From the IMG/VR virus record IMGVR_UViG_3300025128_000015, positions 124,001 through 188,000 of that record: DNA of 64,000 nt; one strand, 5' to 3'. A model generated the notes under the pieces. The model saw only the letters and a list, made by a program, of their open reading frames with translations. It was not told the origin of the DNA and did no database searches. The DNA comes from a virus. Of the stretch, positions 2,273 to 64,000 are shown one piece after another (the first letter of the stretch is position 1; each line of letters begins with the position of its first letter). The position numbers and the translations under genes are program-made.

Positions 2273-5077
2273 ATGGGTGGTGTAGCTGGACATATGAATC
2301 ATTTATATGATAACCCTAATCTCACATTTAGAGAGATGAAAAGAGTTATTATCGCTGCTAGTGAAGGTAAGCTTGAAGGTACAGAAAAGACAGACGGTCA
2401 AAATCTATTTATCACCTACGATATTCAAAGCCAAACAGCCAGAGCAGCTAGAAATAAGGGAAACCTTCGTTCAGGAGGTTTAGATGCAGCCGGATTGTCC
2501 GCTAAATTTGCTGGTCGTGGATCTGTAGAAGCAGCTTTTAACGATGCTTTCTCTATTTTTGAAAAAGCGGTTAGTAGTTTATCATTAGAAGAACAGCAAA
2601 GATTATTCCAGTCAGAAGGTCCTGAATCTCAAGTTTATTATAATGCTGAAATTCAAGATCCTAGAAACGCCAATGTTATCAATTATGATACCAAAACCTT
2701 AAATATTCACAGAGTTGGACATGTTTCTTACAATAGCCAAACCGGTGAGATCAAACAAACTGATTTGTCAAAAGAAGCTAACTATATTGAATCTGTTCTC
2801 AATAGAATGCAAGATGCTGTAAAAGATCAAAACTTTAGAATTCAAATGAATGCAATCCGCAATTTGCAAAGTTTATCTGATAAGAAACCAACATATAAAG
2901 CACTGCAATCTTTAGAAAATGCTATTAATGATGCTGGCATTAGTGATGAGCAAACTGTCAGCGATTATTTGGTCGCACGTATTATTCCGTCTATTAGAAA
3001 TACTATCGAACTCTCTCCAGAAAATGAAACCTTGCTTTTGAAAAAGATCTTGGGTTATAAAGGTATCAAAATAAACGATATTAAAAGAAATTTGGCACCT
3101 CAACAAAAACAAGCAGTTTCTGCAATTGCGAAAAGAGCGCCTGAATTGGCCAAGAACGCAATTCAACCAATTGAAGAGATTGTGCATGATTTTAGTGTAG
3201 AAATGTTAAGACATTTTGAAAGTATGTTCGTTCTAGATAACGAAAAAGAAGTTGATCGTTTAAGAGCGGAAGTTGACAGAGCAATTCGCTCAATTGAAGC
3301 ATCTGGTTCTGAAGAAGCAATTTCTATTCTTCAGCAGCAAATGAAGAAACTAAAAGCTCTAGATAACGTCACAACGGCTGCTGAAGGCTTTGTATTCGAT
3401 TATGACGGGGTTACCTATAAGTTTACCGGTAACTTCGCTCCTATCAACCAAATATTGGGGCTATTTAAGTATGGTCGAAAAGGTATCTCAATTGAACCTG
3501 TTGACGAAGATAATATGGACGAAATGTTGCAAAGTTTAAATGAAAACATTTTACAGAAAAAGGTTGCAATTAAGTTTGGAAATATGTCACACTATCATAC
3601 TCTAGAAAAGTGGCTTGGTATGACAAATAATCCAATCAACGAAGATAATGACTTTGTAGAAGTCAGATTATCAAATAATGAAATTGTTCCAGCTTTTAGT
3701 CACATTTTAAGCGAAGGACTTATCGAAAACAATATTTCTTTAGATAACTTACTGGCCGAAGATTTTACTGAAGAAGAAGGTAAAGCTGCTATTGAAGGAG
3801 CTATTAGGTATTATGCAAATGTTCTTTTCGAGCAAGAAATGCAAGCTCAATATGTTGTTATGATTCCTGGTGGATTTAAACCTCCCACTGCTGGTCATTA
3901 TAATATGATTAATCAATATGCACAACATCCTTCAGTAAAAGAGGTTATTGTTATTCAAGGTCCAAAAGACAGAGACGGAGTAACAAATACAGAATCTAAA
4001 GCAATATTCGAACTTTATGGTGGTTTTCCTAATAACGTTAAGTTTATGGTATCTAGATCAGAGGAAAAGACTCCTTTGGCGACAGCTTATGAACTAATGA
4101 AGGAAGAAAGTTTTGTTTTACAATTTAGCCCAGATACGATATTCTCAATAGGTGCTAGCTCTAAAGGGGGTGACGATAAGAGGGTACGAGAATTTGTAAG
4201 CTATTTTGATAGAACTGGTACTGCTTTGCAAAATATTAATATTGCGCCACCACCCTTTGTCGCTCCTGTATTTGAAAGAGATGGTATTCAATTAAGTGCT
4301 TCTACAATGAGAAAAGCTATGGCCGAAAATGATTTAGATATGGTTAAATTGCACCTTCCAGGTGACGAATATCTAAATGCTGTTTTACAGATTTTAGACT
4401 ACGATACAGAACAAAAAAAAACGATGGAAGAAGCACTAAATTTGACGGATTTATTTTCTTTGGTTGAATCTGTTATGAACGAGAAAAAGAAAACAAAGAA
4501 GAAAAAAGAAAAAGGACCAAAGATAGTGCGAGATAGGAGAATGCCTCTAACGTTTGATAACGACGGAGATGCTGAATTAGCAGTACAATATCAAAAGACT
4601 AAAACAAGAAATCCTAAAAAAGAACTTGTCGAGCAAGCTGAGCCTGGAATTCCTTTTGAGCAGGCAAAAGATGGATTTAAACAAACGTTTGATCAGGGCG
4701 GAATTCCAGCAGTAATGGAATTTTTAGGTGGAGGTGGACAATTCGGTCCAGGAGTAGAAGGTTTGAAAGGTTTTTTTGAACAGCAATCGCCTGCAGTTGA
4801 CAAAATTAATGATATATTAAGGTTAGTTGTAGGAGAATCTGAAGTTAACGAGACGTTTAATAAGTTTAGTTCACTTATTGGTAATGAATATGCGGCGAAG
4901 ACCGGACCTGTGGAAGAAAATGAAGATATCGATGAAGCATCCTCAATGGGAGGCGGAAATGTTGCAATTGGTGGAGTCGGGGGAAATGTTGACGAAGACG
5001 AGCCAAACGGACTAATTAGAGAAGAAGACGATATTATTGAAAGAATAATACACAAACTATCGACTGGAGAGTTTTAA
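2273..5077 (+). CDS. Ligase-superfamily / NMN-adenylyltransferase-like fusion protein
   Basis: The 934-aa protein has two recognisable enzyme domains. Residues 1-400 carry the covalent nucleotidyltransferase (DNA/RNA ligase) motifs: KTDG at about 40 (motif I lysine), a RNKGNLRSGG element near 60, NAEIQDPRNAN near 125 (motif III-like), EGFVFDYDG near 373 and YKFTGNF near 383 (motifs IV and V). Residues about 525-700 are a Rossmann-type nucleotidylyltransferase with GGFKPPTAGHY (the GxFxPxHxGH-type motif) and LSASTMRKAM (the ISxSxxR-type motif), as in NMN adenylyltransferases. The C-terminus is a Lys-rich, then acidic tail with LSGTxEF-like end and two amphipathic helices. A strong Shine-Dalgarno AAGGAG precedes the ATG. 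The substrates are not known. NAD synthesis feeding a ligase, or RNA repair, are both possible. Confidence 0.75.
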   Translation: MGGVAGHMNHLYDNPNLTFREMKRVIIAASEGKLEGTEKTDGQNLFITYDIQSQTARAARNKGNLRSGGLDAAGLSAKFAGRGSVEAAFNDAFSIFEKAVSSLSLEEQQRLFQSEGPESQVYYNAEIQDPRNANVINYDTKTLNIHRVGHVSYNSQTGEIKQTDLSKEANYIESVLNRMQDAVKDQNFRIQMNAIRNLQSLSDKKPTYKALQSLENAINDAGISDEQTVSDYLVARIIPSIRNTIELSPENETLLLKKILGYKGIKINDIKRNLAPQQKQAVSAIAKRAPELAKNAIQPIEEIVHDFSVEMLRHFESMFVLDNEKEVDRLRAEVDRAIRSIEASGSEEAISILQQQMKKLKALDNVTTAAEGFVFDYDGVTYKFTGNFAPINQILGLFKYGRKGISIEPVDEDNMDEMLQSLNENILQKKVAIKFGNMSHYHTLEKWLGMTNNPINEDNDFVEVRLSNNEIVPAFSHILSEGLIENNISLDNLLAEDFTEEEGKAAIEGAIRYYANVLFEQEMQAQYVVMIPGGFKPPTAGHYNMINQYAQHPSVKEVIVIQGPKDRDGVTNTESKAIFELYGGFPNNVKFMVSRSEEKTPLATAYELMKEESFVLQFSPDTIFSIGASSKGGDDKRVREFVSYFDRTGTALQNINIAPPPFVAPVFERDGIQLSASTMRKAMAENDLDMVKLHLPGDEYLNAVLQILDYDTEQKKTMEEALNLTDLFSLVESVMNEKKKTKKKKEKGPKIVRDRRMPLTFDNDGDAELAVQYQKTKTRNPKKELVEQAEPGIPFEQAKDGFKQTFDQGGIPAVMEFLGGGGQFGPGVEGLKGFFEQQSPAVDKINDILRLVVGESEVNETFNKFSSLIGNEYAAKTGPVEENEDIDEASSMGGGNVAIGGVGGNVDEDEPNGLIREEDDIIERIIHKLSTGEF

Positions 5078-7937: not shown

Positions 7938-8288
7938 GGGGATGAACTGGTATCGACTGAGCATTAATTATATTGTGTGCAAGACAGAGGGCTGCGAGGC
8001 TCTGTATAAAAACGCGGAAATTTTAATTGCCAACAATAACGTTGCATTTGATTACGCACTAGCTGCGTAATCATGGGGTTGTAGTTACCTTATTAACCAA
8101 AACTACAAAAGGTGAATTTGCCGCCTTATAAGAGCAAAACTGTTTAATTTGAGTTTATCTCAAACCGAACAGGTGAACTTTGTATATTAAGTGGGATTGA
8201 TAATTGGGCGGGCTTTTATCTTATTCTTGTAAAACACAGAATATCAGAAGTGTTTAGGACCGGGGTTCGACTCCCCGCATCTCCACCA
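7938..8288 (+). ncRNA. ssrA: tmRNA (SsrA), complete, phage-encoded
   Basis: A complete one-piece tmRNA. The tRNA-like ends pair: GGGGATG at 7938 with CATCTCC before an encoded ACCA (8285-8288), including the usual G-U pair. The T arm CGGGGTTCGACTCCCCG is at 8260-8276 and the D-loop-like GGTATCGACTG follows the 5' end. The tag reading frame runs 8029-8070: resume codon GCC and peptide ANNNVAFDYALAA, then TAA. The ALAA end is the ClpXP degron. Helix 5 is a perfect 10-bp hairpin over the stop codon (8049-8073). tmRNA with SmpB rescues ribosomes stalled on broken mRNA and tags the peptide for degradation. No smpB gene is in the window, so host SmpB would be needed. Upstream 7884-7937 holds only AT-rich sequence with TTACTAAT at 7914-7921. 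Confidence 0.97.
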
Positions 8289-9467: not shown

Positions 9468-9926
9468 ATGAAATTATTAATTGAAAATTGGCGCAAGTTT
9501 TTAAATGAAAAAAAGATAGTAATAAAAATTAAAAAAGCCGATGGGCAAGAAATGGATTGCCCTGCTGCAACACAAGACGTAGACCTAAATACTAAAAATA
9601 GAAACGCTACAAGAAAAAACCATATGTATGGACCTTTGAACGTTAACGAGCCTGGCGATTACTGGCAAAAGCTGTCAGAAAAGTGGGACACAACTGAAGA
9701 GGCGGCCAAAAAGTCTACATGTGGTGTTTGTGTGGCTTTCGATATATCTCCTAGAATGGACGAATGCATGCCAGGACCTGTATCAGATGAATCAGGTCGT
9801 CTAGGATATTGTTGGATGCACCATTTCAAATGTCACTCTGCAAGATCTTGCGATACTTGGGCCATGGGAGGTCCAATAAAAGAAGATTCTAAATCTATGG
9901 AATGGCAAGAAAAAAATAAAAAATGA
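9468..9926 (+). CDS. Cys/His-containing protein with N-terminal LxE helix
   Basis: The 152-aa protein begins MKLLIENWRKFLNEKK, an amphipathic helix ending in LNE that closely resembles the starts of the proteins at 6393 and 11369. The C-terminal half has many Cys and His residues (CGVCVAFD, RMDECMPG, GYCWMHHFKCHS, SCDTW) and may bind a metal or form disulfides. AAGGA precedes the ATG by a good distance. It overlaps the following Smr gene by four bases. It is probably packaged or structural if the N-terminal motif is a capsid-targeting peptide. Otherwise unknown. Confidence 0.6.
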   Translation: MKLLIENWRKFLNEKKIVIKIKKADGQEMDCPAATQDVDLNTKNRNATRKNHMYGPLNVNEPGDYWQKLSEKWDTTEEAAKKSTCGVCVAFDISPRMDECMPGPVSDESGRLGYCWMHHFKCHSARSCDTWAMGGPIKEDSKSMEWQEKNKK

Positions 9927-11368: not shown

Positions 11369-14300
11369 ATGACAATGAAACATCTACTAGAAAGTTGGAG
11401 ATCTTACGAGCGTAAGGTTTTGACCGAAGAAAAAGAGCCTCTCGACGAGATCTCATATAATTATGCAGAAGAGGTTGAGAACTGGCTAGCTGATAACGGC
11501 GATCAAGTTGCTCTTCCGTTTAATGATCTATTTGACGATAAACTTCGTAAAGTTATTCCTTTAGGAAAGGCGATTGCGCCTAATTCTGAAATTGCATCTT
11601 TAATCAATTGGTTTAAAAGAAATGGCTATGAGCTTGATTTTAAAACCGGCTTGGCATCAAAAGAAGTTGAAGATCGCCAAGGAAATAAAAGATTAAAGCA
11701 GATGAAACCTGGCAAATTATTAGCTCAGGCTCAAAAATATCTCACCAAATATGATAAATTATATGGTGAAATGAATGATATTGTTGTAGGTTTAGGTTAT
11801 AAAGTTGATTATCGCGAACATGAACCCTGGCAAAAGAAAAGAGCAGAAAGAATGGATCATCTAGAAAGGGCAGAGCGGGTTTTTCCTGCAATCTCTCGTG
11901 ATGTGACACAGACTGTACAAAATCATATACAATTTTGGAACAAGAAGTCTCAATTCTATCGTGAAAACCCAGAAAAAGCATTTATAGAATATTCAATTAT
12001 TCTTTCCCGTGCGCCAATCGATGTTTTAAGAATGTCAGATCATAAAAATATTAGGTCATGCCACTCAGAAGGAAGTGATTATTTTAAGTGCGCAAGAGCA
12101 GAAGCGCAAGGACACGGACCAATTGCATATGCTGTTGAAACAAGAGATTTAGAAGATATTGATTTAGATGACGATGAAGTATTTGAAGATCGTGAGAGGG
12201 GAATTGGTGGAATTGAACCTGTTTCTCGTGTACGATTGAGAAGATTTACATCAAGAGAAACAACTTTAGATTTAGCAGTACCAGAGCAAAGAACTTATGG
12301 CACAAGCATTCCCGGCTTTGTAAAGAAAGTAACAGACTGGGCTAGAGAATCACAAAAACCTGTTTGGGAAGATTTCATAGATGAGAATTCTGGAAAAATA
12401 GATCCAGAGTTTCATGGTATGTTTTTTAGAACGGGTGGATCTTATACAGATACATCTTCTTCGTCCTTATTCAATAAAATGTTCGAAGATTATGGAGCAA
12501 GCTTTCATGGATCAGCTCCACACCGAGGAAGTGAAGAAGAATTTGAAGACGGTGGAGACGAATATGAACAAGACTATGAGCGATTCCACGAAGAACTTCG
12601 AGATATAAATGTTGCAATAGATGATGCAGAATATAATGTATCTCGCTTTAGAGATGTCGGACCAACCGGTGAATCAGGATTTCAGTTTAGCGCAGAAATC
12701 GATAACGATGAATGGCAAGAAATGGGCGATGAGGTGAGCGCATATTGGAACGGCTCAATGACTTTTACATTTATAGAAGGCGAAGAAAGCTTGCCATCTC
12801 ATCATAAAGAACAACAGGATATTGCTGACGAAATTCAAAAATTAATAGCGAGTGAAGTACATTTGGGCATAATGGAAACCCAAATCGACGATGTTGGAAA
12901 CACCATAGAAGTAAGAGTGGAATTTGAAACGTACAACGACGGAGTATACTCCATCGCAGAACAAATTCGCTCATTTGTTGAAGATATGGAATCGACTTCC
13001 GAAGAATACAATGATATGAAAGCCATGATATATACCCATCTTGCAAAAAGTGGTTATGTTAATCCAACTGCAGCAGCAACTTTAACTAATAAATTAGCTG
13101 CAGGCGAACTAGAATTCAAACATTTCGAGTTAACTCACGACAACGAAGGACATTATATTACTCTTAAAGTTGACGACGAAGACGAAGCCACAGGAGTTGA
13201 TTTTCCTAAGAGAGTCGACACCTACAGAGCCCCAAAAACAACTGTCGGTCCTATTAGAAATCGCTTGTTAGAATTAATGAGAGAAGGATATGGCGGAGCA
13301 AGAGGATTATCTGCAACATCTAGCAATCGATATGGATTAGTACAATCGAAACAATTCACAAGACAAGTTTTAGATCTGTTAACTCCAGAAATTGCCGCAA
13401 TAGTTAAAGCCAACGCAGATCAACAGAAGCTAGACCTGCAAGAAAACAGCTCTATAACGCCTCAAGCAATAGAAGCCCACCTCTTACAAGGATTTGTCCT
13501 AAAACTGCGTGAAATACAGCGTAGAGAGCCGATGAAGGGACATGGACGAAGGAAGGATGAAGTTCCTGGTAAAACTCCAATATATGTTGACGTAGAAGAA
13601 ATGCATTATTCTTTGGATGATGAAGATGAATTTGAAATAGTCGAACCTATTATTGCTTTCTTTGTTCACTTAGATAAGAATATTGACAAGTTATTTAAGG
13701 CCATTACCGATGTACTTCAAACATTGGATGTTCAATATGGCAATAAAACAGTAGAAGGACAAAGCCAAATTAACGATATCGTACAAATGGCTGATGACGT
13801 AGCTGAATTTGTAAAAGAAAAGACTGGTGGCGGAGTTATATATGGAGACTCCAGAGACGTCTCATCACCAAAAACTTATCGTGAAAAATTACTTCAGGGA
13901 CTAAAAAGAGCAAATTACGTTCTTGCTAAATTAACATCTCCAGGAGATCAATCATATATTTCAATGTTTACAGGTATTGAAACTCAATATCCTTTAAGAA
14001 TGAATGATTCAGAAAGATTCATAAAGATTATTACCATGTTGCAACGCGATCATGCCGAAATGAATATATATTGGAAAAAGTTGACACCAGAAGATCTCGA
14101 CAAGTCTTTAGAGCAAGAAGAAGAACCACATAAACCAGCAGATGATAGAGATGATGGTTGGCAACCAGGAATGCCAGTGACAGAATCGTTGGCTAATAAA
14201 TTAAGAAGTTATTTGGGTGAGCAGAAAAAAATCAAATTAAAAGATGTTCCCCGCGTCAAACACATTCCAAAAGCATCGTATGGACTGCCCGTCAAAGGAA

Positions 14301-16306
14301 TAGGATCTCTAATTAAAGTTCTTGGTCGAAAAACAAAACAAGATGCTCTCGCCGCCACCAACAGGATAGGTGATCTGGTTAACGCGGTGGTCGACGAACC
14401 GCTTGAAAAAGCGATAACAGATAAAGAAAAAATTAACCCAGCCCACGACACCGGTAAAGCTGCAGCACAATTTGCTCAAAAAGCAATGACTAAGAAAGCA
14501 GCTAGTGATCGTCGTAAGAAATATAAGCATGCTCTTCCAAAAATATTTAAAGAAGAATCACTATCTGAAAAATTAACAAAGTACTTGGATGAGAATCTTA
14601 AATTGAAAAAAAGAACACCAAGTCGACCGATCGGCTCGCCAAATCTTAAAGATATTGATAGAGCATCCAATCTTGAACGATTTGATAAACACAATATGAA
14701 AAATTATGATGAAGAAGGATATTATATTGGACGCCCACTCACAGCCAAAGGCGCCCAGCCCTCATTCGGTGACAATATTGAAGATTTACCTTCAAAATTT
14801 ACCCAAAATTTTAGCAGACTTTTGAGAAGTAAAAGTCCCAAAAGAAGAGATAAAATTACAAACTATCTGCCAGATTTTGAAATTGGTACTGGAGACATAT
14901 CCTTAGCGCCTAATTTAAAGTTTTATGCTACGGCACGCACCAATTGGGATGAAAGAAGACCAGAAGGACGTTTGAGCAAAAATATGAAATTCGTGGATGA
15001 CCCCGGAGATACAAATAAAATTTATGATGATGAAGGATATCATATTGGTTATGAGGATGATGTCAAATCCCAACCACTCGTACCTAGAGCACAACCAAAG
15101 ATAAGCGGACGTCCATACGGACATTACGCCGGCGTTGGGTTAAAAGGAACGTTTGAAGAAAACAACAATCCAGAAGAATCACTATCTGAAAAATTAACAA
15201 AGTACTTGGATGAAAATGACAAACCAGATTATCAAGCAGCTATAAAGAAAGCGAAAGAACATGAAAAATTAATTAACCCACAAAAAGTTAAAAGAGAAAA
15301 GAAAAAGAAAACTCAGACTAAAAAGGCTAGAGAAACTTATAAACGTTTGAGAAAGTATTTGGAAGAACAATCGCCAACACAAAAAAAAACTAAAGATGCA
15401 ACTGGAAAGATATCTAAATCATATGATTCTGGACCAGACGCTTATCGTTGGAAAGAATTATTCAAACGCAAAGGTTTAGATCCATCAAAAGGATCTGAGG
15501 TTTCTAAAAAAATTGGAAGTCAATTAAAAGGAGTGAAAGCTGTAGAAGCTCCAGCAACAAAAGGAGTTGATTCCGGTGTTGCCCGAGCATTCTACGATCC
15601 GAAAAAACCTAAACAGATACAATATTTTAAAGGAGCGGATCCAAAAAAATCAACTGTTCGACATGAATTAGGACATGTAGTTTCGAAGTTGGCTTCTAAA
15701 GAGAAACCAGTATCTGATTTAGTTAGAGGAGATAAATCTGCTAAGAAACTGCGAACACAAGAACCAAAAAGATATTCCCGCGGCACTCCATCAGAACGGA
15801 TAGGTACGTTAGAACCAGATGCAATGTTACCTTCTCAATTGTACGGTGGAGAAGGAGGAGAATACGAAAAGATTTTTCGATTCCAACACAGACCTGATGT
15901 TAAAATTGGTCGTAGACTCGACCGCGGCCTCGGTAAAGTTGGTTCTAGGACCCAAGCTAGAAAAGGTTATGTAGCAGACGAATTATATGCGCCAATCAAA
16001 AACACACAATGGTCAATTCAAGATGCGGCCAAAAACAATCCGAAAAAAGGATATATGGATGGAAATCGAATCACTCCAGCTGCTGTGAGTGCTATATGTA
16101 GCGGAGAAATCAAAGTTTCTTCTAAAGTTCGAAATAATGTTCGAGGATGTAACGAAAGAGATCCTGAAAAAAGAAAGCAAATTTTTCAAGGTGTATCCGA
16201 TGCTCTCAATAGAGTCGCGAAAGGACCACAAAAACGCCAACAAAGAAAAATGGTTGCAGAATCACTATCTGAAAAATTAACAAGGTTTTTGGATGAAAAT
16301 AACTAA
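11369..16306 (+). CDS. 1645-aa modular protein with repeated LxE helices and a zincin motif
   Basis: The N-terminus MTMKHLLESWRSYERKVLTEE is the LxE-type helix seen in neighbouring genes. Residues about 180-260 hold a conserved-looking core, VLRMSDHKNIRSCHSEGSDY and KCARAEAQGHGPIAYAV, of a type I associate with large phage proteins of unknown function. Very acidic regions follow to about 930. The C-terminal part is then divided by copies of ESLxxKLxxxLxE starting at residues 939, 1063, 1270 and 1631, the last being the very C-terminus. Two modules also share a (D/E)EGYxIG repeat (about 1115 and 1220). The third module carries HELGH (1432-1436) in VRHELGHVVSKLA, a metallopeptidase signature. 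It is a possible internal-head polyprotein cut at LxE sites. The function of each part is unknown. Confidence 0.7.
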   Translation: MTMKHLLESWRSYERKVLTEEKEPLDEISYNYAEEVENWLADNGDQVALPFNDLFDDKLRKVIPLGKAIAPNSEIASLINWFKRNGYELDFKTGLASKEVEDRQGNKRLKQMKPGKLLAQAQKYLTKYDKLYGEMNDIVVGLGYKVDYREHEPWQKKRAERMDHLERAERVFPAISRDVTQTVQNHIQFWNKKSQFYRENPEKAFIEYSIILSRAPIDVLRMSDHKNIRSCHSEGSDYFKCARAEAQGHGPIAYAVETRDLEDIDLDDDEVFEDRERGIGGIEPVSRVRLRRFTSRETTLDLAVPEQRTYGTSIPGFVKKVTDWARESQKPVWEDFIDENSGKIDPEFHGMFFRTGGSYTDTSSSSLFNKMFEDYGASFHGSAPHRGSEEEFEDGGDEYEQDYERFHEELRDINVAIDDAEYNVSRFRDVGPTGESGFQFSAEIDNDEWQEMGDEVSAYWNGSMTFTFIEGEESLPSHHKEQQDIADEIQKLIASEVHLGIMETQIDDVGNTIEVRVEFETYNDGVYSIAEQIRSFVEDMESTSEEYNDMKAMIYTHLAKSGYVNPTAAATLTNKLAAGELEFKHFELTHDNEGHYITLKVDDEDEATGVDFPKRVDTYRAPKTTVGPIRNRLLELMREGYGGARGLSATSSNRYGLVQSKQFTRQVLDLLTPEIAAIVKANADQQKLDLQENSSITPQAIEAHLLQGFVLKLREIQRREPMKGHGRRKDEVPGKTPIYVDVEEMHYSLDDEDEFEIVEPIIAFFVHLDKNIDKLFKAITDVLQTLDVQYGNKTVEGQSQINDIVQMADDVAEFVKEKTGGGVIYGDSRDVSSPKTYREKLLQGLKRANYVLAKLTSPGDQSYISMFTGIETQYPLRMNDSERFIKIITMLQRDHAEMNIYWKKLTPEDLDKSLEQEEEPHKPADDRDDGWQPGMPVTESLANKLRSYLGEQKKIKLKDVPRVKHIPKASYGLPVKGIGSLIKVLGRKTKQDALAATNRIGDLVNAVVDEPLEKAITDKEKINPAHDTGKAAAQFAQKAMTKKAASDRRKKYKHALPKIFKEESLSEKLTKYLDENLKLKKRTPSRPIGSPNLKDIDRASNLERFDKHNMKNYDEEGYYIGRPLTAKGAQPSFGDNIEDLPSKFTQNFSRLLRSKSPKRRDKITNYLPDFEIGTGDISLAPNLKFYATARTNWDERRPEGRLSKNMKFVDDPGDTNKIYDDEGYHIGYEDDVKSQPLVPRAQPKISGRPYGHYAGVGLKGTFEENNNPEESLSEKLTKYLDENDKPDYQAAIKKAKEHEKLINPQKVKREKKKKTQTKKARETYKRLRKYLEEQSPTQKKTKDATGKISKSYDSGPDAYRWKELFKRKGLDPSKGSEVSKKIGSQLKGVKAVEAPATKGVDSGVARAFYDPKKPKQIQYFKGADPKKSTVRHELGHVVSKLASKEKPVSDLVRGDKSAKKLRTQEPKRYSRGTPSERIGTLEPDAMLPSQLYGGEGGEYEKIFRFQHRPDVKIGRRLDRGLGKVGSRTQARKGYVADELYAPIKNTQWSIQDAAKNNPKKGYMDGNRITPAAVSAICSGEIKVSSKVRNNVRGCNERDPEKRKQIFQGVSDALNRVAKGPQKRQQRKMVAESLSEKLTRFLDENN
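14552..14596 (+). repeat. 45-bp dispersed repeat, copy 1
   Basis: Encodes EESLSEKLTKYLDEN. It differs from the copy at 15173-15217 at a single base and from the copy at 16256-16300 at four. The near-identity at DNA level across 1.7 kb of one gene points to recent duplication or gene conversion of the motif. A diverged version is at 14183 (ESLANKLRSYLGE). Confidence 0.95.
15173..15217 (+). repeat. 45-bp dispersed repeat, copy 2
   Basis: Encodes EESLSEKLTKYLDEN, in frame with copies 1 and 3. It opens the module that contains the HELGH motif. Confidence 0.95.
16256..16300 (+). repeat. 45-bp dispersed repeat, copy 3
   Basis: Encodes AESLSEKLTRFLDEN, one residue from the C-terminus of the 1645-aa protein. 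The start codon of the downstream glutaredoxin gene (16293) lies inside this copy. Confidence 0.95.
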
Positions 16307-56348: not shown

Positions 56349-56360
56349 TTGGTTTGATGA

Positions 56361-59300
56361 ATGTCTTACAATAGTTTAAAAAATTTGTTTGAGAAGGATT
56401 CGCAGAAAATAATCGCGCAGACTTCTAGTTTAGGTACGTTGGGCAATAAAACAGAGTCCGAGGGATACCTAAAGGCTTATAAAGTATACAAAGAGAGAGT
56501 AACGCCTCAAATTGATTTTTCTAAGCCTAAGAACTGGGTACGCTATGGCTCTGCAGAACAGTATTATGTCGACGCAACTGCCAATATATATGATTCTTAT
56601 CCTTATGATGGATCTGAAAAAGAAAAAATAGAGTGGCACAACAGCTCGTCGTACTTTGAAAATTATGTTTTTGAAAATGAGTATCCTAGAACAAATGGAC
56701 ATATTGTTTTAAACAATATACGACCGTCTCCGGGCTCTGGAAGCTACGGTTCAGGTGGAGATCCACAATATATTCTAACAACTGGCTCAATGGCCAAAGA
56801 CAATGTATATGATTTGTCTAAGAACAGAGCAGAAAATCTTTTTGTTGACCTGTCAAAAGACGGAGCAACAGTAGAATTCTGGTTAAAAAAGAACGGATTT
56901 CTTGGCTCTCTGAAAACAAAAAGAGAAGTTATCTATGATTTATGGAATAACGAGCTAGTTTCAAGTACAGCATACGGCCGATTACGAATCGAAATGGATT
57001 CAACAAGAGCAGACACAGTTTTTCTGCTAACAGCAGCTTCTGGCTCAGCCGGCGTAAAATTAGCCACAATTGGAACAACAGGTTCTCACGGAGCTGGTTT
57101 TACAACTTCTAAAGTTGGCGATGATAAATGGCAGCACTATGCATTCACTTTTAAGAATACTACAACAAACAATATTGAATGTGAGATGTATCACAATGGT
57201 AAATACATAGAAACAATTGTTACTGGTTCAAACATAAATGCTATTTCCGGCGCCATATCTTGGTCACAAAATAAACCAATAGTTTCTACAATTGGTGCTC
57301 TTGCCCATAGAACTTCTTATGCCTTAGACTCGATTGCAAAATTAGGTCACGGATCTTTAAGTGCATCGATAGATGAGTTTAGATTTTGGAAAACACGCAG
57401 AACTGCAAAAGAAATTGGAACTAACTGGTTTGGACAAGTTGGTGGCGGGTCAAACACTGATGACGCAAACACAAAATTGGGCTTGTATTATAAGTTTAAT
57501 GAAGGGATAACTACTACATCAACCATCGATGAAATCATATTAGACTATTCTGGTCGTGTATCAAATGGTAAGTTTGTTGGGTACAGCGCAGCTAGCAAAC
57601 ATAGAGCAACCGGATCTGCCATGTTGAATTCTGGATATGCTAAATTTGAGTTTAAAGACCCGATTATTTATGATGAACACCCAGATGTAGGCGCGTATAT
57701 AGCTCAGAAAAAACTTACAGGCTCGATGTATGATGATACGAATCCTTCATACTTGTATTACACATTCCCTCAATGGGTTATTGAAGATGATGAAAAGGGA
57801 CAACTTCATAAACTAACTCAGATCATGGCCAGTTATTTTGACTCTCTTCATTTGCAAATTGCTCAAATACACAAACTTAAGAGCGTCAACTATCCAAGCG
57901 GAACACAAAAGCCTTATCCGTTTATGAATCAACTTCTGCAGGATAAGGGTTTTTATATATCTGAGTTATTTAACAATTCTGATTTGATAGAGACTTATAG
58001 TAATCAAACAGAAGATTTTGTTATCAAAGATAAGCTTCATGACATTAAGAATAGAATTTATCAAAACATATATAATAACTTGACATATATCTACAAAACA
58101 AAAGGTACTGAGCAGTCTATTACTGCTCTCTTACGATGCCTTGGACTAGGTGATGACCTAGTAAAAGTAAATTATTATGGCAACAACAATGAATATCTTT
58201 TCAGAGAGAATTTTAGAAATGCAACTGTAAAGAAAAGATTCCTTAATATGTCTGATTCTAGTTTTACTGGAACTGTATATCAGAGCACGGGCTCGGGTGA
58301 TTCTGTGGCATCGTCTTTTTATAATCGACTTGCAGTTTCTCATCTTCAAGGTGGAGAAAGCTTGTATGATATACCAATGACTTTGGAAACTAATGTATTT
58401 TTTCCAAAGAACGTGGAAGGTTCAAATAATGTTAACACCGAAATGACGTCCTCTATTATTGGTATGCATACAATCGATACTTCAGGTGATTTTGGTTTGC
58501 ATTCAAATACATGGTCAAAAGAGGGATTTAATACACCAGCTTCATTTGAAGATGCAGCAAATCTACACATTCTTGCTGAAAAACATCCACAATTCAAACA
58601 CCATGTACGTTTTCACATATCGGGCTCTTATCGTGGAACAATTGCTATGTCCAGTTCATGGGTTAAAAACGTTTATGATAACGAACATTGGAATTTAAGT
58701 GCCCGTATTCGTCCCAAGAATCATGAACAATTTTATACTTATACAAACTTAGGCAAGGTTGGTGCGGCCGCAACAGCTATGTATACTAGCGCCTCATACG
58801 AATTAATTTTTCATGGTGCACATGCTAATTTAGGTACAATAGAGAAAGAATTTACTTTAAGCAAGGACTTAACATTCAATCAAGCTACGGCTTTCTTAAC
58901 AAGTTCTAAGAAAATTTATGTTGGTTCACACAGAATCAATTATACGGGTAGTGTTATTAATAAAAGTGACGTCGATGTAACTTCTGTAAGGTTTTGGCAC
59001 AATAACTTAACTGATCAAGAACTTCAGTCTCACATAAAAGATATAACAAATTATGGTGTTGAATCGCCTTATGGCAATTCACTTATATCTCTATCAGGAA
59101 ATTCTCCTCACAATGATCAGAAATATATGAACACTTTATCAGGAGCTTACGTCCCTAACTATAAGACGCTAGCTCTTCACTGGAATTTCGAAAATATCTC
59201 TGGTTCTGGACCGATTGGTGGTTTTGACGTCTTTGACTTTTCTTCGGCCTCAATGCCTTCACCAACCAACGCATACAACGACTTTACACCGTTTATTGAG

Positions 59301-62300
59301 AAATATAATTCTGGTGTTGGTCTAGGATTTAAGCCAAATAGCACTAGGGCTGTTGTTGAGAACTTCGTTTTCACTTCTAAACTACAACCTCCAGAGGTTA
59401 TGAATAGTTCTGATCAGATTGAGATTAGGAATTTTGATCAAGATATCTTTTCAAAAACACAAAGACCAACAACTTATTTTGCAGCCATTGAAAAAAGCCC
59501 GTATCAAATTGTTTCAGATCAAATGCTGAATATGTTCTCTACAATACTAGAATTTAATAGTATTATTGGTCATCCTGTTCATAGATATCGTCTAGAATAC
59601 AAGCAACTAAATAAATTAAGAAACTTATTCTTCCAGAGAGTTGGAAAGTCCGTTGATTTTGATAGATTTTTAGAATTCTATAAATGGGTTGACTTTACAA
59701 TTAACAAAATGCTAGAAAGTATTGTACCTGTTTCGGCCAATATTTCTGGCGATATCAGAACGGTTGTTGAAAGTCATATACTTGAAAGAAATAAATATAA
59801 ACATCCGTTTGTTAGATACATTGATATTGAGTTTGAGCCAGAGTTTAAGCCTCTGCCACCTCATCATGGTCTAAATTCTATTGTTGGCGACTTGCCTCCA
59901 GGATATCAAAAATATTCTAAACAAACTCAAGGTGGTTCTTCCGACCCGACGACAGAAACTACGAAACACGCTATGTTAGCTCCTCCTGACGGACCAATCA
60001 ATCAAACAACAAGCTATTATGTCAATCCTGAAAAGGGAGCTAAGACACTTAGAAACCACGAAATTAGCGCATTAAATAGAAATACAATAGGCAACACAAT
60101 TGTTGATACTAATAGGGAAGTCCTAAGAAAGAGCATAATGTCGACTCTTTATAATAGAAGGTTATCCCCTGGACTCTCTGCCGGAGTAGAATTTTCTATT
60201 GAGCAAGGAAATAACCAACACAAGAACAAGAAAATTAATTTTGAGAAAGATGTCCTGCCATTTAGAAGTAGAGTAGAAGCCAATAGTGATTATGTTAGTA
60301 TTGCGGCCGCAGACTTAAATCCGGATTACGGACTTCAAGATGTTGTCATACATCGTCAAGAAAAGGAAAGATACAGTGGAAAAGCTCAAGTCTTGCAAAA
60401 TGATGGGGCTGGTAATTTTTCTGAAGAAGAGTCAGTATCTAAATTAGATATCGTTGCTCCTTTTACAATTTATAAACATAATAACAATACAAATAGTGTC
60501 GTTAGCACCAACTTTAAAGCAAATCACGAGTTTACCAATCTGCATCGCGATACATATACCACAGAAGTACCGTTGCAAAGTCCATTTACTAATGAACATG
60601 TTGGTGGTTTAAATTATCGCCACACTCCAATTAACGTTATTAATACAACAAAATCTGAAGCAGATAATGAATTGAATAGAGCAGAGGGCTGGAGAATACG
60701 TTTTAGTAGTAATACTGCAAAAATATACGGACCAGGTGGTGATGGTCCTCATAAGCCAAGGTCTTCTTTCTATCGTGAAGAAATGGTTAAGCGACCTGTC
60801 AATATTAAGAATATTAAAACAGTCACTTCTTCATTTAACGGACAAAGAATACTTGGAAACTACCATCACAATTATGAGCTTGTACAAACTGTTGGCTCTG
60901 ATGTTAACAATCTTTGGTTTGTACATCATACAGGTAATTTGCCAAGCTCCGGTTCTGATTCAAAGTCTATTGTTTTCAGTGATTTACAAGATTATAAAGT
61001 CGACGAGAGAACTACATTAAGAGATCTTTCGACAAGACAAAAAACTGTTATCAATGATAGATTCTCAGCCCCAGGTGGACCAGAAGTTAATTCTCTTGGC
61101 TTCTTAGATGAGGCTTCTAGAACATACAGTGTATACAATAATCTAAACTACAGAAACTTATCGGTCAGGCAACCTCTAAAAACGCTTCTAAGCGAAGCTG
61201 AAGGCAAATACATAGGAAACCCTGGGTTTAACCTTCGAAGAGCAGGAACAGCGTCTTTCCATGATATACACAATAATCATATGTCGGTGTTAAAGAGGCC
61301 AGGATCAACAGTATTAACATCATCAGTTTACAATAACGGTTTTGTAATTACACCGATTCCTTCTTCTGATCGCCAATATTCATGGATAACATCATCACTA
61401 AATACACATCCTATAGGTGATTCTGCTCCGTTAAGGTATGCAAATCGTAGTGGAGAAGAGAGAAAGGTTAAATCAAGCGGGTTTATCTATACTCCATCGA
61501 TCATAAACGTTAGCTCTAGTGAAATAAGCAGTTACCTGGCAGGAGGCGCACGTCGAATCGGCGGACTTGATCAAAATAAAAAGCCCACTGGCTTCCTCGC
61601 TGGTTCAAGATTATCCAGCGATTTCGTTGGGTTAAATTATCATTTAGTATCTGCGGTTACTGCAAGTGAAAATTACTTAAGCAGTTCCGGTTTTAATACA
61701 AAATTCTTGACTCCTAATGCTAGCGCAGCAAGAGATACGTTAAATACGTGGCTGCTTTCGCATAATGGACCTTATCATTATCCTTCCTTCAAACAAATTA
61801 GGACAGGTGAACATCCTGTAGCTCGACATATGCGACAAAACAATAGGATCGCAATTCAGAAGCCTGCAAGAACATTTACAGATGATCAAGGCAACTACTA
61901 TAAAGAAATGCGTCATCCACATTTTCGCTCTTTCACAGAGCCTGTTGTAACAACGCGCTACAAACCTTTGAGACATAGATTCTTATATAAGCCGGATGAT
62001 TTAAACGCACTAGAAGATAGTCGTGAAGGGCAAGGATTAAAGAACGAAGTAAAAAGAGATCCAAATCAGTTAGTCGCTGACCTAATAACATTAGAGCACA
62101 CATATGGAAACAAGCTAGCTGGATTCAGTCGTAACGAAATTGATAAATTAATTGACGTCAAAGTAAATACAGAAGATTTACCATATGATGATTTAACTGC
62201 AATTTACTTATACAACGGATTAACTGGAGACACAACACCAGTTGAGAAGTTTGTTTCATTAAACTATAAAGAAAGAGTTTGGCCAAGAGAAAAGAATGAG

Positions 62301-64000
62301 TATCTTTCAAAAACCTTCATGAGAAAGAATTACTTTGTTTCGTTTTGGCGAGAAAACAGAAATGATCGAGTAGTAACAAATCCAGTTCCACACGAATCAT
62401 GGACTAACGGAAGCGCAAAAGGTTTTTTAAACTCATTTGGAAAGTCGTGGACAGTAAAAGATCAAGGAGGCGGCACCACTGCTCCAAGACCTTGTATCGG
62501 TGACACAGGCAGCATGTGGCCATTAGACGCCAGAACATCCGACAATCTAGGCAATACATCTTTCGAGACTTCTATTACAATTAATGGACTTGGCTCAGCT
62601 GGAACAACGCATGGCACAGGAGCCATCGCCCCGATGATATCAGGTGGGCTTGGCGAATTATGGAGCATGTATCCACAGTGGAATACTATCGATAATGCAA
62701 AAGCTTCTGGAGGTACTCCGAAATCCTTCGGTGCGCAAATGAGTCCAATTTATGCCCGCCGAACGCTCGAAAATGTTTGGATTCCATCTGGTGGAAGTAA
62801 TACTTTGACATATATGTTGGCCGGTGATACAAAGTGGGAAGCTGGCGAACAAGCAGGAAAACAACCGTTCCCACAAGGAACATATGAAGATTGGGCCGAA
62901 GATTTACGACGTCAAGGCAAGGACTTCTCGTTAATACCAGAGTTTAGAATTAGTGAGCATATGGATTATTATGTCAACACAAAAGCCTCTGATTTCTTAG
63001 CAGATAATGAAGGATTCCTAACATTGACAGGTACTGCAGAAACAAACAGTGCAAACGAAAACTTTTATAAAGAATACGCTCATAGTGATTTTCTTAAGCA
63101 TTTTAATATAGTAGAAGAGCACCGAAACACAACATTTGGCAACGGCAACAAAATTCAAAGAGCGGAAGACACGTCGCTTACTTTAAAATGTAAGGCGTTG
63201 ATGAAATTTTTGCCTTATAGTGGTTTCTATCCTGTGTTGAGAACGCTAAATTTAGCTAGCCTATTTTCAGCATCGTTTTTCGAAGGCGCCTTCGTTACTG
63301 CTCAAGTTAATGGAGAGATTGCAAACAATCATTTAGGACACAAAAGATCAATTATTACTCCTTATTTTGCACCAGGTATTATGTATAATACAATAAAATC
63401 TGGTATTGCGGTAGACTATCCAGTATATACTGCAGAAAATGGTTCTATTTCTACTGTTACTGCTAGCTACGAATCTACAGCGTCTTTTAAAACTACTCAA
63501 GGAATAAATAATTATGGACTTCGCCTGAACGAAGACTTCTCAAAAAGGTTGGAATTCGAAAGTATATTAGACCCCTCAGAATTTTATCGTGGTTTATTAA
63601 TTTTGGATCAAGAGTTACATTCCTCTGCCTCTGCATCTCCCTCTTTTGGTGCCTCTAACGCTTCTTTCAGTGAAGCAAAAGACAAGAGATATAAATTGGC
63701 AATGCACAATTTCTTAGCAGAATCAATGCAGTTCTTTGTCGACAAGACAGCGATTAAATCAGAATACGGTGATTTAGATCCAAGGTTCGGCGCTATGTCA
63801 GGTACTGTTCCTTACGAAATGTTCATTATTTTAAAGAAAACAGGTTCTTTTTCAATGTATGATAGACCTCATGCTTTTGGACCACCAGTTGCGAATGCAT
63901 TCACATCATCAACCTCGTTGCAACCTTCACTTTTTACAAATGAAGTTTACGGAACTCCTAGCAATGCCGGCATAGGAAAAGCTTCAGGTTACGCTCCTTT
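56361..64000 (+). CDS. Large tail protein with LamG-like domains (partial, runs off window)
   Basis: Open from ATG 56361 to the window end, about 2546 residues without a stop. It has two concanavalin/LamG-like domains: about 154-354 (ATVEFWLKKNGFLGSL, WQHYAFTFKNTTTNN, ASIDEFRFWKTRRTA) and about 747-897 (WNLSARIRPKNHEQFY, TSVRFWHNNLTDQELQ). Between them, NNLTYIYKTKGTEQSITALL (about 574-593) is like a motif found in large phage tail proteins. Later parts are Ser/Thr/Gly-rich with many short beta strands. LamG domains commonly bind glycans, so it is a candidate host-receptor or baseplate-fibre protein. Confidence 0.8.
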   Translation, partial: MSYNSLKNLFEKDSQKIIAQTSSLGTLGNKTESEGYLKAYKVYKERVTPQIDFSKPKNWVRYGSAEQYYVDATANIYDSYPYDGSEKEKIEWHNSSSYFENYVFENEYPRTNGHIVLNNIRPSPGSGSYGSGGDPQYILTTGSMAKDNVYDLSKNRAENLFVDLSKDGATVEFWLKKNGFLGSLKTKREVIYDLWNNELVSSTAYGRLRIEMDSTRADTVFLLTAASGSAGVKLATIGTTGSHGAGFTTSKVGDDKWQHYAFTFKNTTTNNIECEMYHNGKYIETIVTGSNINAISGAISWSQNKPIVSTIGALAHRTSYALDSIAKLGHGSLSASIDEFRFWKTRRTAKEIGTNWFGQVGGGSNTDDANTKLGLYYKFNEGITTTSTIDEIILDYSGRVSNGKFVGYSAASKHRATGSAMLNSGYAKFEFKDPIIYDEHPDVGAYIAQKKLTGSMYDDTNPSYLYYTFPQWVIEDDEKGQLHKLTQIMASYFDSLHLQIAQIHKLKSVNYPSGTQKPYPFMNQLLQDKGFYISELFNNSDLIETYSNQTEDFVIKDKLHDIKNRIYQNIYNNLTYIYKTKGTEQSITALLRCLGLGDDLVKVNYYGNNNEYLFRENFRNATVKKRFLNMSDSSFTGTVYQSTGSGDSVASSFYNRLAVSHLQGGESLYDIPMTLETNVFFPKNVEGSNNVNTEMTSSIIGMHTIDTSGDFGLHSNTWSKEGFNTPASFEDAANLHILAEKHPQFKHHVRFHISGSYRGTIAMSSSWVKNVYDNEHWNLSARIRPKNHEQFYTYTNLGKVGAAATAMYTSASYELIFHGAHANLGTIEKEFTLSKDLTFNQATAFLTSSKKIYVGSHRINYTGSVINKSDVDVTSVRFWHNNLTDQELQSHIKDITNYGVESPYGNSLISLSGNSPHNDQKYMNTLSGAYVPNYKTLALHWNFENISGSGPIGGFDVFDFSSASMPSPTNAYNDFTPFIEKYNSGVGLGFKPNSTRAVVENFVFTSKLQPPEVMNSSDQIEIRNFDQDIFSKTQRPTTYFAAIEKSPYQIVSDQMLNMFSTILEFNSIIGHPVHRYRLEYKQLNKLRNLFFQRVGKSVDFDRFLEFYKWVDFTINKMLESIVPVSANISGDIRTVVESHILERNKYKHPFVRYIDIEFEPEFKPLPPHHGLNSIVGDLPPGYQKYSKQTQGGSSDPTTETTKHAMLAPPDGPINQTTSYYVNPEKGAKTLRNHEISALNRNTIGNTIVDTNREVLRKSIMSTLYNRRLSPGLSAGVEFSIEQGNNQHKNKKINFEKDVLPFRSRVEANSDYVSIAAADLNPDYGLQDVVIHRQEKERYSGKAQVLQNDGAGNFSEEESVSKLDIVAPFTIYKHNNNTNSVVSTNFKANHEFTNLHRDTYTTEVPLQSPFTNEHVGGLNYRHTPINVINTTKSEADNELNRAEGWRIRFSSNTAKIYGPGGDGPHKPRSSFYREEMVKRPVNIKNIKTVTSSFNGQRILGNYHHNYELVQTVGSDVNNLWFVHHTGNLPSSGSDSKSIVFSDLQDYKVDERTTLRDLSTRQKTVINDRFSAPGGPEVNSLGFLDEASRTYSVYNNLNYRNLSVRQPLKTLLSEAEGKYIGNPGFNLRRAGTASFHDIHNNHMSVLKRPGSTVLTSSVYNNGFVITPIPSSDRQYSWITSSLNTHPIGDSAPLRYANRSGEERKVKSSGFIYTPSIINVSSSEISSYLAGGARRIGGLDQNKKPTGFLAGSRLSSDFVGLNYHLVSAVTASENYLSSSGFNTKFLTPNASAARDTLNTWLLSHNGPYHYPSFKQIRTGEHPVARHMRQNNRIAIQKPARTFTDDQGNYYKEMRHPHFRSFTEPVVTTRYKPLRHRFLYKPDDLNALEDSREGQGLKNEVKRDPNQLVADLITLEHTYGNKLAGFSRNEIDKLIDVKVNTEDLPYDDLTAIYLYNGLTGDTTPVEKFVSLNYKERVWPREKNEYLSKTFMRKNYFVSFWRENRNDRVVTNPVPHESWTNGSAKGFLNSFGKSWTVKDQGGGTTAPRPCIGDTGSMWPLDARTSDNLGNTSFETSITINGLGSAGTTHGTGAIAPMISGGLGELWSMYPQWNTIDNAKASGGTPKSFGAQMSPIYARRTLENVWIPSGGSNTLTYMLAGDTKWEAGEQAGKQPFPQGTYEDWAEDLRRQGKDFSLIPEFRISEHMDYYVNTKASDFLADNEGFLTLTGTAETNSANENFYKEYAHSDFLKHFNIVEEHRNTTFGNGNKIQRAEDTSLTLKCKALMKFLPYSGFYPVLRTLNLASLFSASFFEGAFVTAQVNGEIANNHLGHKRSIITPYFAPGIMYNTIKSGIAVDYPVYTAENGSISTVTASYESTASFKTTQGINNYGLRLNEDFSKRLEFESILDPSEFYRGLLILDQELHSSASASPSFGASNASFSEAKDKRYKLAMHNFLAESMQFFVDKTAIKSEYGDLDPRFGAMSGTVPYEMFIILKKTGSFSMYDRPHAFGPPVANAFTSSTSLQPSLFTNEVYGTPSNAGIGKASGYAP

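What the first reader, a model, noticed from the sequence alone, without database searches (positions are those of the whole stretch)
11369..16306. Possible virion polyprotein split by repeated LxE helices
The motif ESLxxKLxxxLxE recurs at residues 939, 1063, 1270 and 1631, three of the copies being near-identical 45-bp DNA repeats, and it divides the protein into modules, one of them with a HELGH zinc motif. T4-type prohead protease cuts after LxE/IxE. These sites could release several packaged proteins. The residue after each E (K, E, N, Q) differs from the small residue T4 prefers.
Basis: partly seen in the sequence, partly recalled or inferred. Interest (0 to 1): 0.75.

Follow-up and report, generated by a model that had tools for sequence, protein, structure and literature searches.

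The report
Phage cargo protein with repeated tags
A marine T4-like phage has a 1,645-residue protein in which three extra pieces were added to a family protein, each piece ending in a copy of the short end tag that probably sends proteins into the virus head and may mark where the head protease cuts.

Summary
The ORF at 11369-16306 carries ESLxxKLxxxLxE at residues 939, 1063, 1270 and 1631; about 3e-5 copies are expected by chance. The phage is a T4-like marine myovirus with a gp21-type prohead protease and a capsid-protein site of the LxE|A/S kind. The motif is best read as a head-targeting tag rather than only a cut site. Very common N-terminal leaders (MKLLLENWRKYLNE) and C-terminal tags (ESLVKTWKDYLRS) share its form. 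Residues 1-938 belong to a stand-alone family (231 matching IMG/VR stretches) that usually ends in such a tag. A close syntenic relative (82% identical, locus L293) ends at tag 1 followed directly by tag 4 and lacks the three basic modules between them. So this protein is the family protein plus three cassettes, each ending in the tag. A conserved glutamate changes side: it follows 305 of 458 N-terminal leaders but only 3 of 48 C-terminal tags, and it precedes 39 of 48 C-terminal tags. That supports cutting between tag and cargo. The internal copies have E on both sides. Packaging is likely. Cutting into separate proteins is plausible but not shown.

The parts
11369..11428 (+). N-terminal leader (residues 1-20, MTMKHLLESWRSYERKVLTE; real start probably Met3 at 11375)
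   Evidence: PSSM from 167 leaders of other phages scores it 18 bits, none as good in shuffled proteomes
11429..14182 (+). Module 1 (residues 21-938), acidic, family of stand-alone proteins in marine phages
   Evidence: 22-member alignment A1; 231 IMG/VR stretches encode relatives; Foldseek relatives are uncharacterised phage proteins
14183..14221 (+). Tag 1 (residues 939-951, ESLANKLRSYLGE)
   Evidence: top hit in the ORF of a PSSM built from C-terminal tags of the module-1 family; same position as the C-terminus of relatives
14222..14554 (+). Module 2 (residues 952-1062), basic cassette, pI 10.2
   Evidence: absent from syntenic relative L293; no relatives found
14555..14593 (+). Tag 2 (residues 1063-1075, ESLSEKLTKYLDE)
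   Evidence: 46-bp repeat family D1
14594..15175 (+). Module 3 (residues 1076-1269), basic cassette, pI 9.1, with an internal Y-D-[ED]-[ED]-G-Y-x-I-G repeat
   Evidence: repeat D3; absent from L293
15176..15214 (+). Tag 3 (residues 1270-1282, ESLSEKLTKYLDE)
   Evidence: 46-bp repeat family D1, 98% identical to tag 2
15215..16258 (+). Module 4 (residues 1283-1630), basic cassette, pI 10.2
   Evidence: absent from L293; low-confidence model, mean pLDDT 52.5
15662..15676 (+). HELGH motif (residues 1432-1436) in module 4, possible zinc metallopeptidase, no family match
   Evidence: no Pfam, PDB or PHROG match
15341..15367 (+). Degenerate internal tag-like stretch KRLRKYLEE (residues 1325-1333)
   Evidence: ARETYKRLRKYLEE scores 4.6 bits with the leader PSSM, not significant alone
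16259..16297 (+). Tag 4 (residues 1631-1643, ESLSEKLTRFLDE), C-terminus of the protein
   Evidence: repeat D1; aligns with the C-terminal tag and following DNA of L293
16293..16784 (+). Downstream glutaredoxin-like gene, conserved next to the module-1 gene in L293; its start codon lies inside the tag-4 DNA
   Evidence: Pfam Glutaredoxin, synteny, sequence
9468..9926 (+). Neighbouring cargo-type gene with leader MKLLIENWRKFLNE
   Evidence: leader PSSM score 35.7 bits

Best explanation
The ORF encodes a head-internal cargo protein built from four modules. Short amphipathic tags of about 13 residues dock cargo proteins in the prohead core, as the capsid targeting sequence does in T4. They sit at the N-terminus, the C-terminus or both. 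The gp21-type protease then cuts at glutamates on the cargo side of the tag. Here the ancestral protein was module 1 with C-terminal tags. Three basic cassettes (12, 22 and 39 kDa by length) were later added between them, each ending in a copy of the tag. The copies then act as extra docking sites and as cut points, so the head could receive module 1 and three smaller proteins, ejected with the DNA at infection. Shown: the repeats, the protease and capsid-protein site, the leader and tag families, and the relative lacking the cassettes. Inferred: packaging, docking, cleavage and ejection.
For: Prohead protease, portal, terminase and capsid protein of T4 type. Capsid-protein site LL[RK]E|[AST] conserved in 82 rows. 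The ORF starts with one. In the module-1 family 56 of 67 complete members have a C-terminal tag and 10 of the other 11 have an N-terminal one. C-terminal W-tags: 31 seen against 2.5 expected. The C-tag PSSM puts all four copies among the six best windows of the ORF; fourth-best score p = 0.002. E at W+6 in 305/458 N-leaders against 3/48 C-tags, and E at W-6 in 39/48 C-tags (Fisher p = 8e-17). Relative L293 ends ...TESLANKLRSYLSEVKPLTLSEKLTRYLNENK and lacks modules 2-4, with the same downstream gene. An unrelated 1,134-aa protein (L131) has leaders at 1, 545 and at its exact C-terminus. T4 Alt has N- and C-terminal propeptides cut by gp21 (PMC5694885).
Against: No proteomics. Scored with the N-terminal leader PSSM alone the ESLSEKLTKYLDE copies are weak (5.8 bits, about 12 as good per shuffled proteome); they have L where leaders have W. 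Before the tags, P3 is T in most relatives and V, K, P, V here, so only part fits the LxE rule. Most C-tags come from one family, so the E-side test is not fully independent. Modules 2-4 have no detected relatives. The cassettes are known from one metagenome assembly, and the order of modules 2 and 3 rests on 46-bp repeats.
Confidence: 0.6

Rival explanations
1. Docking only: the tags are repeated core-binding helices that raise the number or avidity of packaged copies, and the long protein stays intact in the head.
For: C-terminal tags in relatives have no E after them and cannot release anything. The fourth copy is the C-terminus. N4 virion RNA polymerase is an example of a large packaged protein left uncut (PMC5512222).
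Against: E is conserved on the cargo side of both N-leaders and C-tags, and internal copies here have E on both sides. Head protease cuts are the rule for T4 leaders.
Confidence: 0.22
2. Self-processing polyvalent protein: the HELGH metallopeptidase module cuts the chain, and the tags matter little for cleavage.
For: HELGH in module 4; such domains are common in multidomain phage proteins and are proposed to process them (PMC5512222).
Against: No match to any peptidase family; a single-sequence model gave no usable fold; the tags recur in proteins where no HExxH motif was seen.
Confidence: 0.08
3. Recombination scar without function: repeated tag DNA fused genes or cassettes by chance, and the internal copies are relics.
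For: Tags 2 and 3 are 98% identical in DNA; no other module-1 relative examined has internal tags; fused leader genes exist elsewhere in the genome (109460).
Against: A 2-kb insertion stays in frame with intact tags, and 26 other proteins in relatives carry both N-terminal and inner leaders.
Confidence: 0.1

Closest known systems
T4 capsid targeting sequence of internal proteins IPI-IPIII
   Same: Short N-terminal peptide, needed for entry into the prohead core, cut off by gp21 after an IxE or LxE site (PMC9026906)
   Different: Different sequence; here also C-terminal and internal, and repeated four times in one chain
T4 Alt with N- and C-terminal propeptides
   Same: Packaged protein trimmed at both ends by gp21 at ITE-6 and LTE-619 (PMC5694885)
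   Different: One cargo domain, no internal tags or cassettes; no Alt or ADP-ribosyltransferase match here
Polyvalent proteins of phages (Iyer et al. 2017, PMC5512222)
   Same: Very large multidomain proteins thought to be delivered into the host, some with HExxH domains
   Different: No known polyvalent domain matched here; modules are separated by targeting-type tags
SPN3US and phiKZ head propeptides
   Same: Several protease sites in one head protein (PMC10052503)
   Different: Their rule is AxE or similar, and multiple cuts remove propeptides rather than release modules

Membership tests
T4-type capsid targeting sequence (CTS) cargo | N-terminal leader of 10-20 residues ending at LxE or IxE | tested here: met
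   MKHLLESWRSYERKVLTE scores 18 bits with a leader PSSM; ends LTE
T4-type capsid targeting sequence (CTS) cargo | Same genome encodes a gp21-type prohead protease and an LxE capsid-protein site | tested here: met
   PHROG 207 at E 6e-58; LLRE|AS in the capsid protein, conserved in relatives
T4-type capsid targeting sequence (CTS) cargo | Protein found inside the head, leader removed | not testable with these tools
   no isolate, no proteomics
T4-type capsid targeting sequence (CTS) cargo | Small residue (A, G, S) after the cut | tested here: inconclusive
   capsid protein A/S/T; leaders mixed, G+S+A 121 of 305; internal copies Q, N, N, N
Phage polyprotein processed by a head protease | Cleavage sites between separate functional modules | tested here: inconclusive
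   module boundaries coincide with tags and with the end of the relative L293; no cleavage data
Polyvalent protein | Match to known polyvalent domains (ART, MPTase, BECR, DdrB-ParB, others) | tested here: not met
   no Pfam, NCBIfam or PHROG match for any module
Zincin-like metallopeptidase (module 4) | HExxH plus zincin fold | tested here: inconclusive
   HELGH present; no family or PDB match; model too poor

The most novel reading that the evidence does not exclude
A true phage head polyprotein: a cargo array that grows by inserting cassettes at tag DNA, each tag serving both to load the chain into the prohead and to be cut out on both sides by the prohead protease, so that one gene delivers several effector proteins in fixed ratio.
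Probability: 0.4. Interest if true: 0.78.

Novelty: new variant of a known kind. Interest (0 to 1): 0.62.

Why it matters
Packaged and injected proteins decide the first minutes of infection, yet they are hard to recognise because they evolve fast. The leaders and tags described here mark several hundred candidate cargo proteins of marine T4-like phages from sequence alone, and the leader peptides were not found in the open literature searched. The fused protein shows how a cargo gene can gain modules through its tag. It suggests a testable rule: the protease-site glutamate lies on the cargo side of the tag. If cutting is confirmed, one gene could load several proteins in fixed proportion.

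Tried and rejected
Whole-ORF searches found no relative (INPHARED tblastn; IMG/VR). Module 4 alone found none, and modules 2-4 gave nothing in 18 large relatives (without a positive control). An exact-peptide scan for ESLxEKLxKYLxE in IMG/VR gave nothing. Module 1 is absent from INPHARED and from the genome collection. Foldseek against PDB gave no significant match; against viral models it found uncharacterised proteins, including ones of Dickeya phage JA29, so the function of module 1 stays unknown. I considered that LxE triplets alone mark cut sites and rejected it: they are not enriched. I considered a mis-assembly at the repeats: the module 1 to 2 junction and the junction to the downstream gene lie in distinct sequence, so it is unlikely for the whole insert, though module order could be affected. 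The cyanophage T4-GC119 proteins related to the leader protein at 111512 are called structural in two records, but the S-SM1 virion table could not be read.

Full report
What was checked. The window is part of a 189,594-base virus record; most of the rest was fetched as stretches. The ORF at 11369-16306 is intact and 1,645 aa long. About 3e-5 copies of the motif are expected by chance.

The phage. It has T4-type terminase, portal (PHROG 213), prohead protease (PHROG 207, E 6e-58) and major capsid protein (PHROG 138). The capsid protein is widespread in marine metagenomes and under 60% identical to any INPHARED record. In 82 aligned capsid-protein rows (81 relatives plus our own) the expected cut site reads LLENQAxxLL[RK]E followed by A, S or T. 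The head protease therefore most likely follows a T4-like LxE rule. This is inferred from conservation, not measured.

The leaders. Many proteins in this genome start with one of two leaders: MKLLLENWRKYLNE (type B) or MKITKSQLKQIIKEELxxxLxE (type A). Both are very common in IMG/VR contigs. A pattern scan for type B stopped at its 120-stretch limit, with up to five copies in one stretch; type A gave 86 stretches. The proteins behind the leaders are of many different kinds. The ORF itself starts with a type B leader (18 bits). This is the arrangement of T4 internal proteins, whose capsid targeting sequence is needed for packaging and is cut by gp21 (PMC9026906).

The motif is a tag. Residues 1-938 belong to a family of stand-alone proteins, typically about 790 to 1,030 aa; 231 IMG/VR stretches encode relatives. 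Most end in a C-terminal tag such as ESLVKTWKGFLNS or ESIVSTWKDYLRS. C-terminal W-tags occur in 31 proteins where 2.5 are expected after shuffling. Of 67 complete family members, 56 have a C-terminal tag, and 10 of the other 11 have an N-terminal leader (a few of the double positives are chance W-x-x-Y matches). A PSSM from the C-terminal tags ranks copy 939 first in the ORF and puts all four copies among the six best windows; the fourth-best score has p = 0.002 on shuffled sequences. The match is moderate because the ORF copies have L in place of W.

The cassettes. Locus L293 is a close relative: 82% identical over the matched part and followed by the same glutaredoxin-like gene. Its protein ends GMPVTESLANKLRSYLSEVKPLTLSEKLTRYLNENK. 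It has tag 1 and tag 4 next to each other and no modules 2-4. The DNA matches ours up to the end of tag 1 and again from within tag 4. None of the other family members examined has internal tags. The simplest history is that three basic cassettes were added in this lineage, each ending in a copy of the tag. Module 1 is acidic (pI 4.8); modules 2, 3 and 4 are basic (pI 10.2, 9.1, 10.2), as T4 internal proteins are (general knowledge).

Do the tags mark cuts? A conserved glutamate lies on the cargo side. In 458 distinct N-terminal leader segments E is at W+6 in 305, with L, I or V at P3 in 287 of those. In 48 C-terminal tags E at W+6 occurs 3 times, but E at W-6 occurs 39 times (Fisher p = 8e-17 for W+6). 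The leader search pattern did not contain the W+6 position. A helix-capping preference could explain an E at the start of a C-terminal tag, but not the E at the end of N-terminal leaders. Most C-tags come from one family, so the counts are not independent. In the ORF all four copies have E on both sides. The residue after E in leaders is E, G, S, D, A, Q, K, T, N and others, so Q and N here are not unusual. Before the tags, P3 is T in most relatives and V, K, P, V here, so an upstream cut fits the T4 rule only in part.

Similar cases. Twenty-six proteins in the fetched relatives have both an N-terminal and an inner leader; about 3 chance hits of any kind are expected in a shuffle of the whole set. 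The best is L131 9854-13258(-), 1,134 aa, with leaders at 1, 545 and 1121, the last being its exact C-terminus. In our own genome 109460-110887 has type A leaders at 1, 204 and 348, and 107781 and 112565 have one at each end. So multi-tag cargo is a recurring theme, and the ORF is its most repeated example here.

Function of the modules. No module matches Pfam, NCBIfam or PHROG families. AlphaFold of module 1 gave mean pLDDT 62, best near residues 50-380, with separate helices at the leader (3-19) and at tag 1 (937-950). Foldseek found no PDB match and only uncharacterised phage proteins. Module 4 has HELGH but the model is poor.

Conclusion. The protein is most likely head cargo, loaded by tags at its ends and between its modules. 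It may be cut there by the prohead protease into four proteins. Packaging about 0.75, cutting between modules about 0.5, both inferred. In kind it is an elaboration of T4 capsid targeting sequences and of Alt's double propeptides, not a new kind of system.

Noticed in passing
G000:C1:109460-110887 (L007:14460-15887): 475-aa protein with type A leaders at residues 1, 204 and 348; the one at 204 starts with Met and is the best leader match of the whole proteome, as if two leader genes had fused.
   Followed up: partly
L122, L126, L130, L141, L153: Several cargo proteins end in ...ETPT: this looks like the out-of-frame reading of the next gene's leader DNA ATGAAACTCCTACTTGAG, so adjacent cargo genes overlap in the leader.
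   Followed up: no
window 16293: The start codon of the glutaredoxin-like gene lies inside the DNA of the last tag (GATGAAAATAAC).
   Followed up: no
window 56349-63000: About 6.6 kb almost without open frames in a gene-dense phage, also when TAG and TGA are read through; possible run of frameshift errors or a decayed tail gene; no INPHARED match.
   Followed up: partly
window 7938-8288: tmRNA gene with tag ANNNVAFDYALAA.
   Followed up: no
window 2273-5077: 934-aa protein with weak cytidyltransferase similarity; a putative cytidylyltransferase, T4-GC190, was detected in the S-SM1 cyanophage virion (PMC3037559).
   Followed up: no
G000:C1:111512-112513 (L007:16512-17513): Leader protein sharing a conserved 84-aa domain with 369 phage records, mostly cyanophages (T4-GC119, called structural in two of them); an inner leader-like motif lies within the aligned stretch.
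   Followed up: partly
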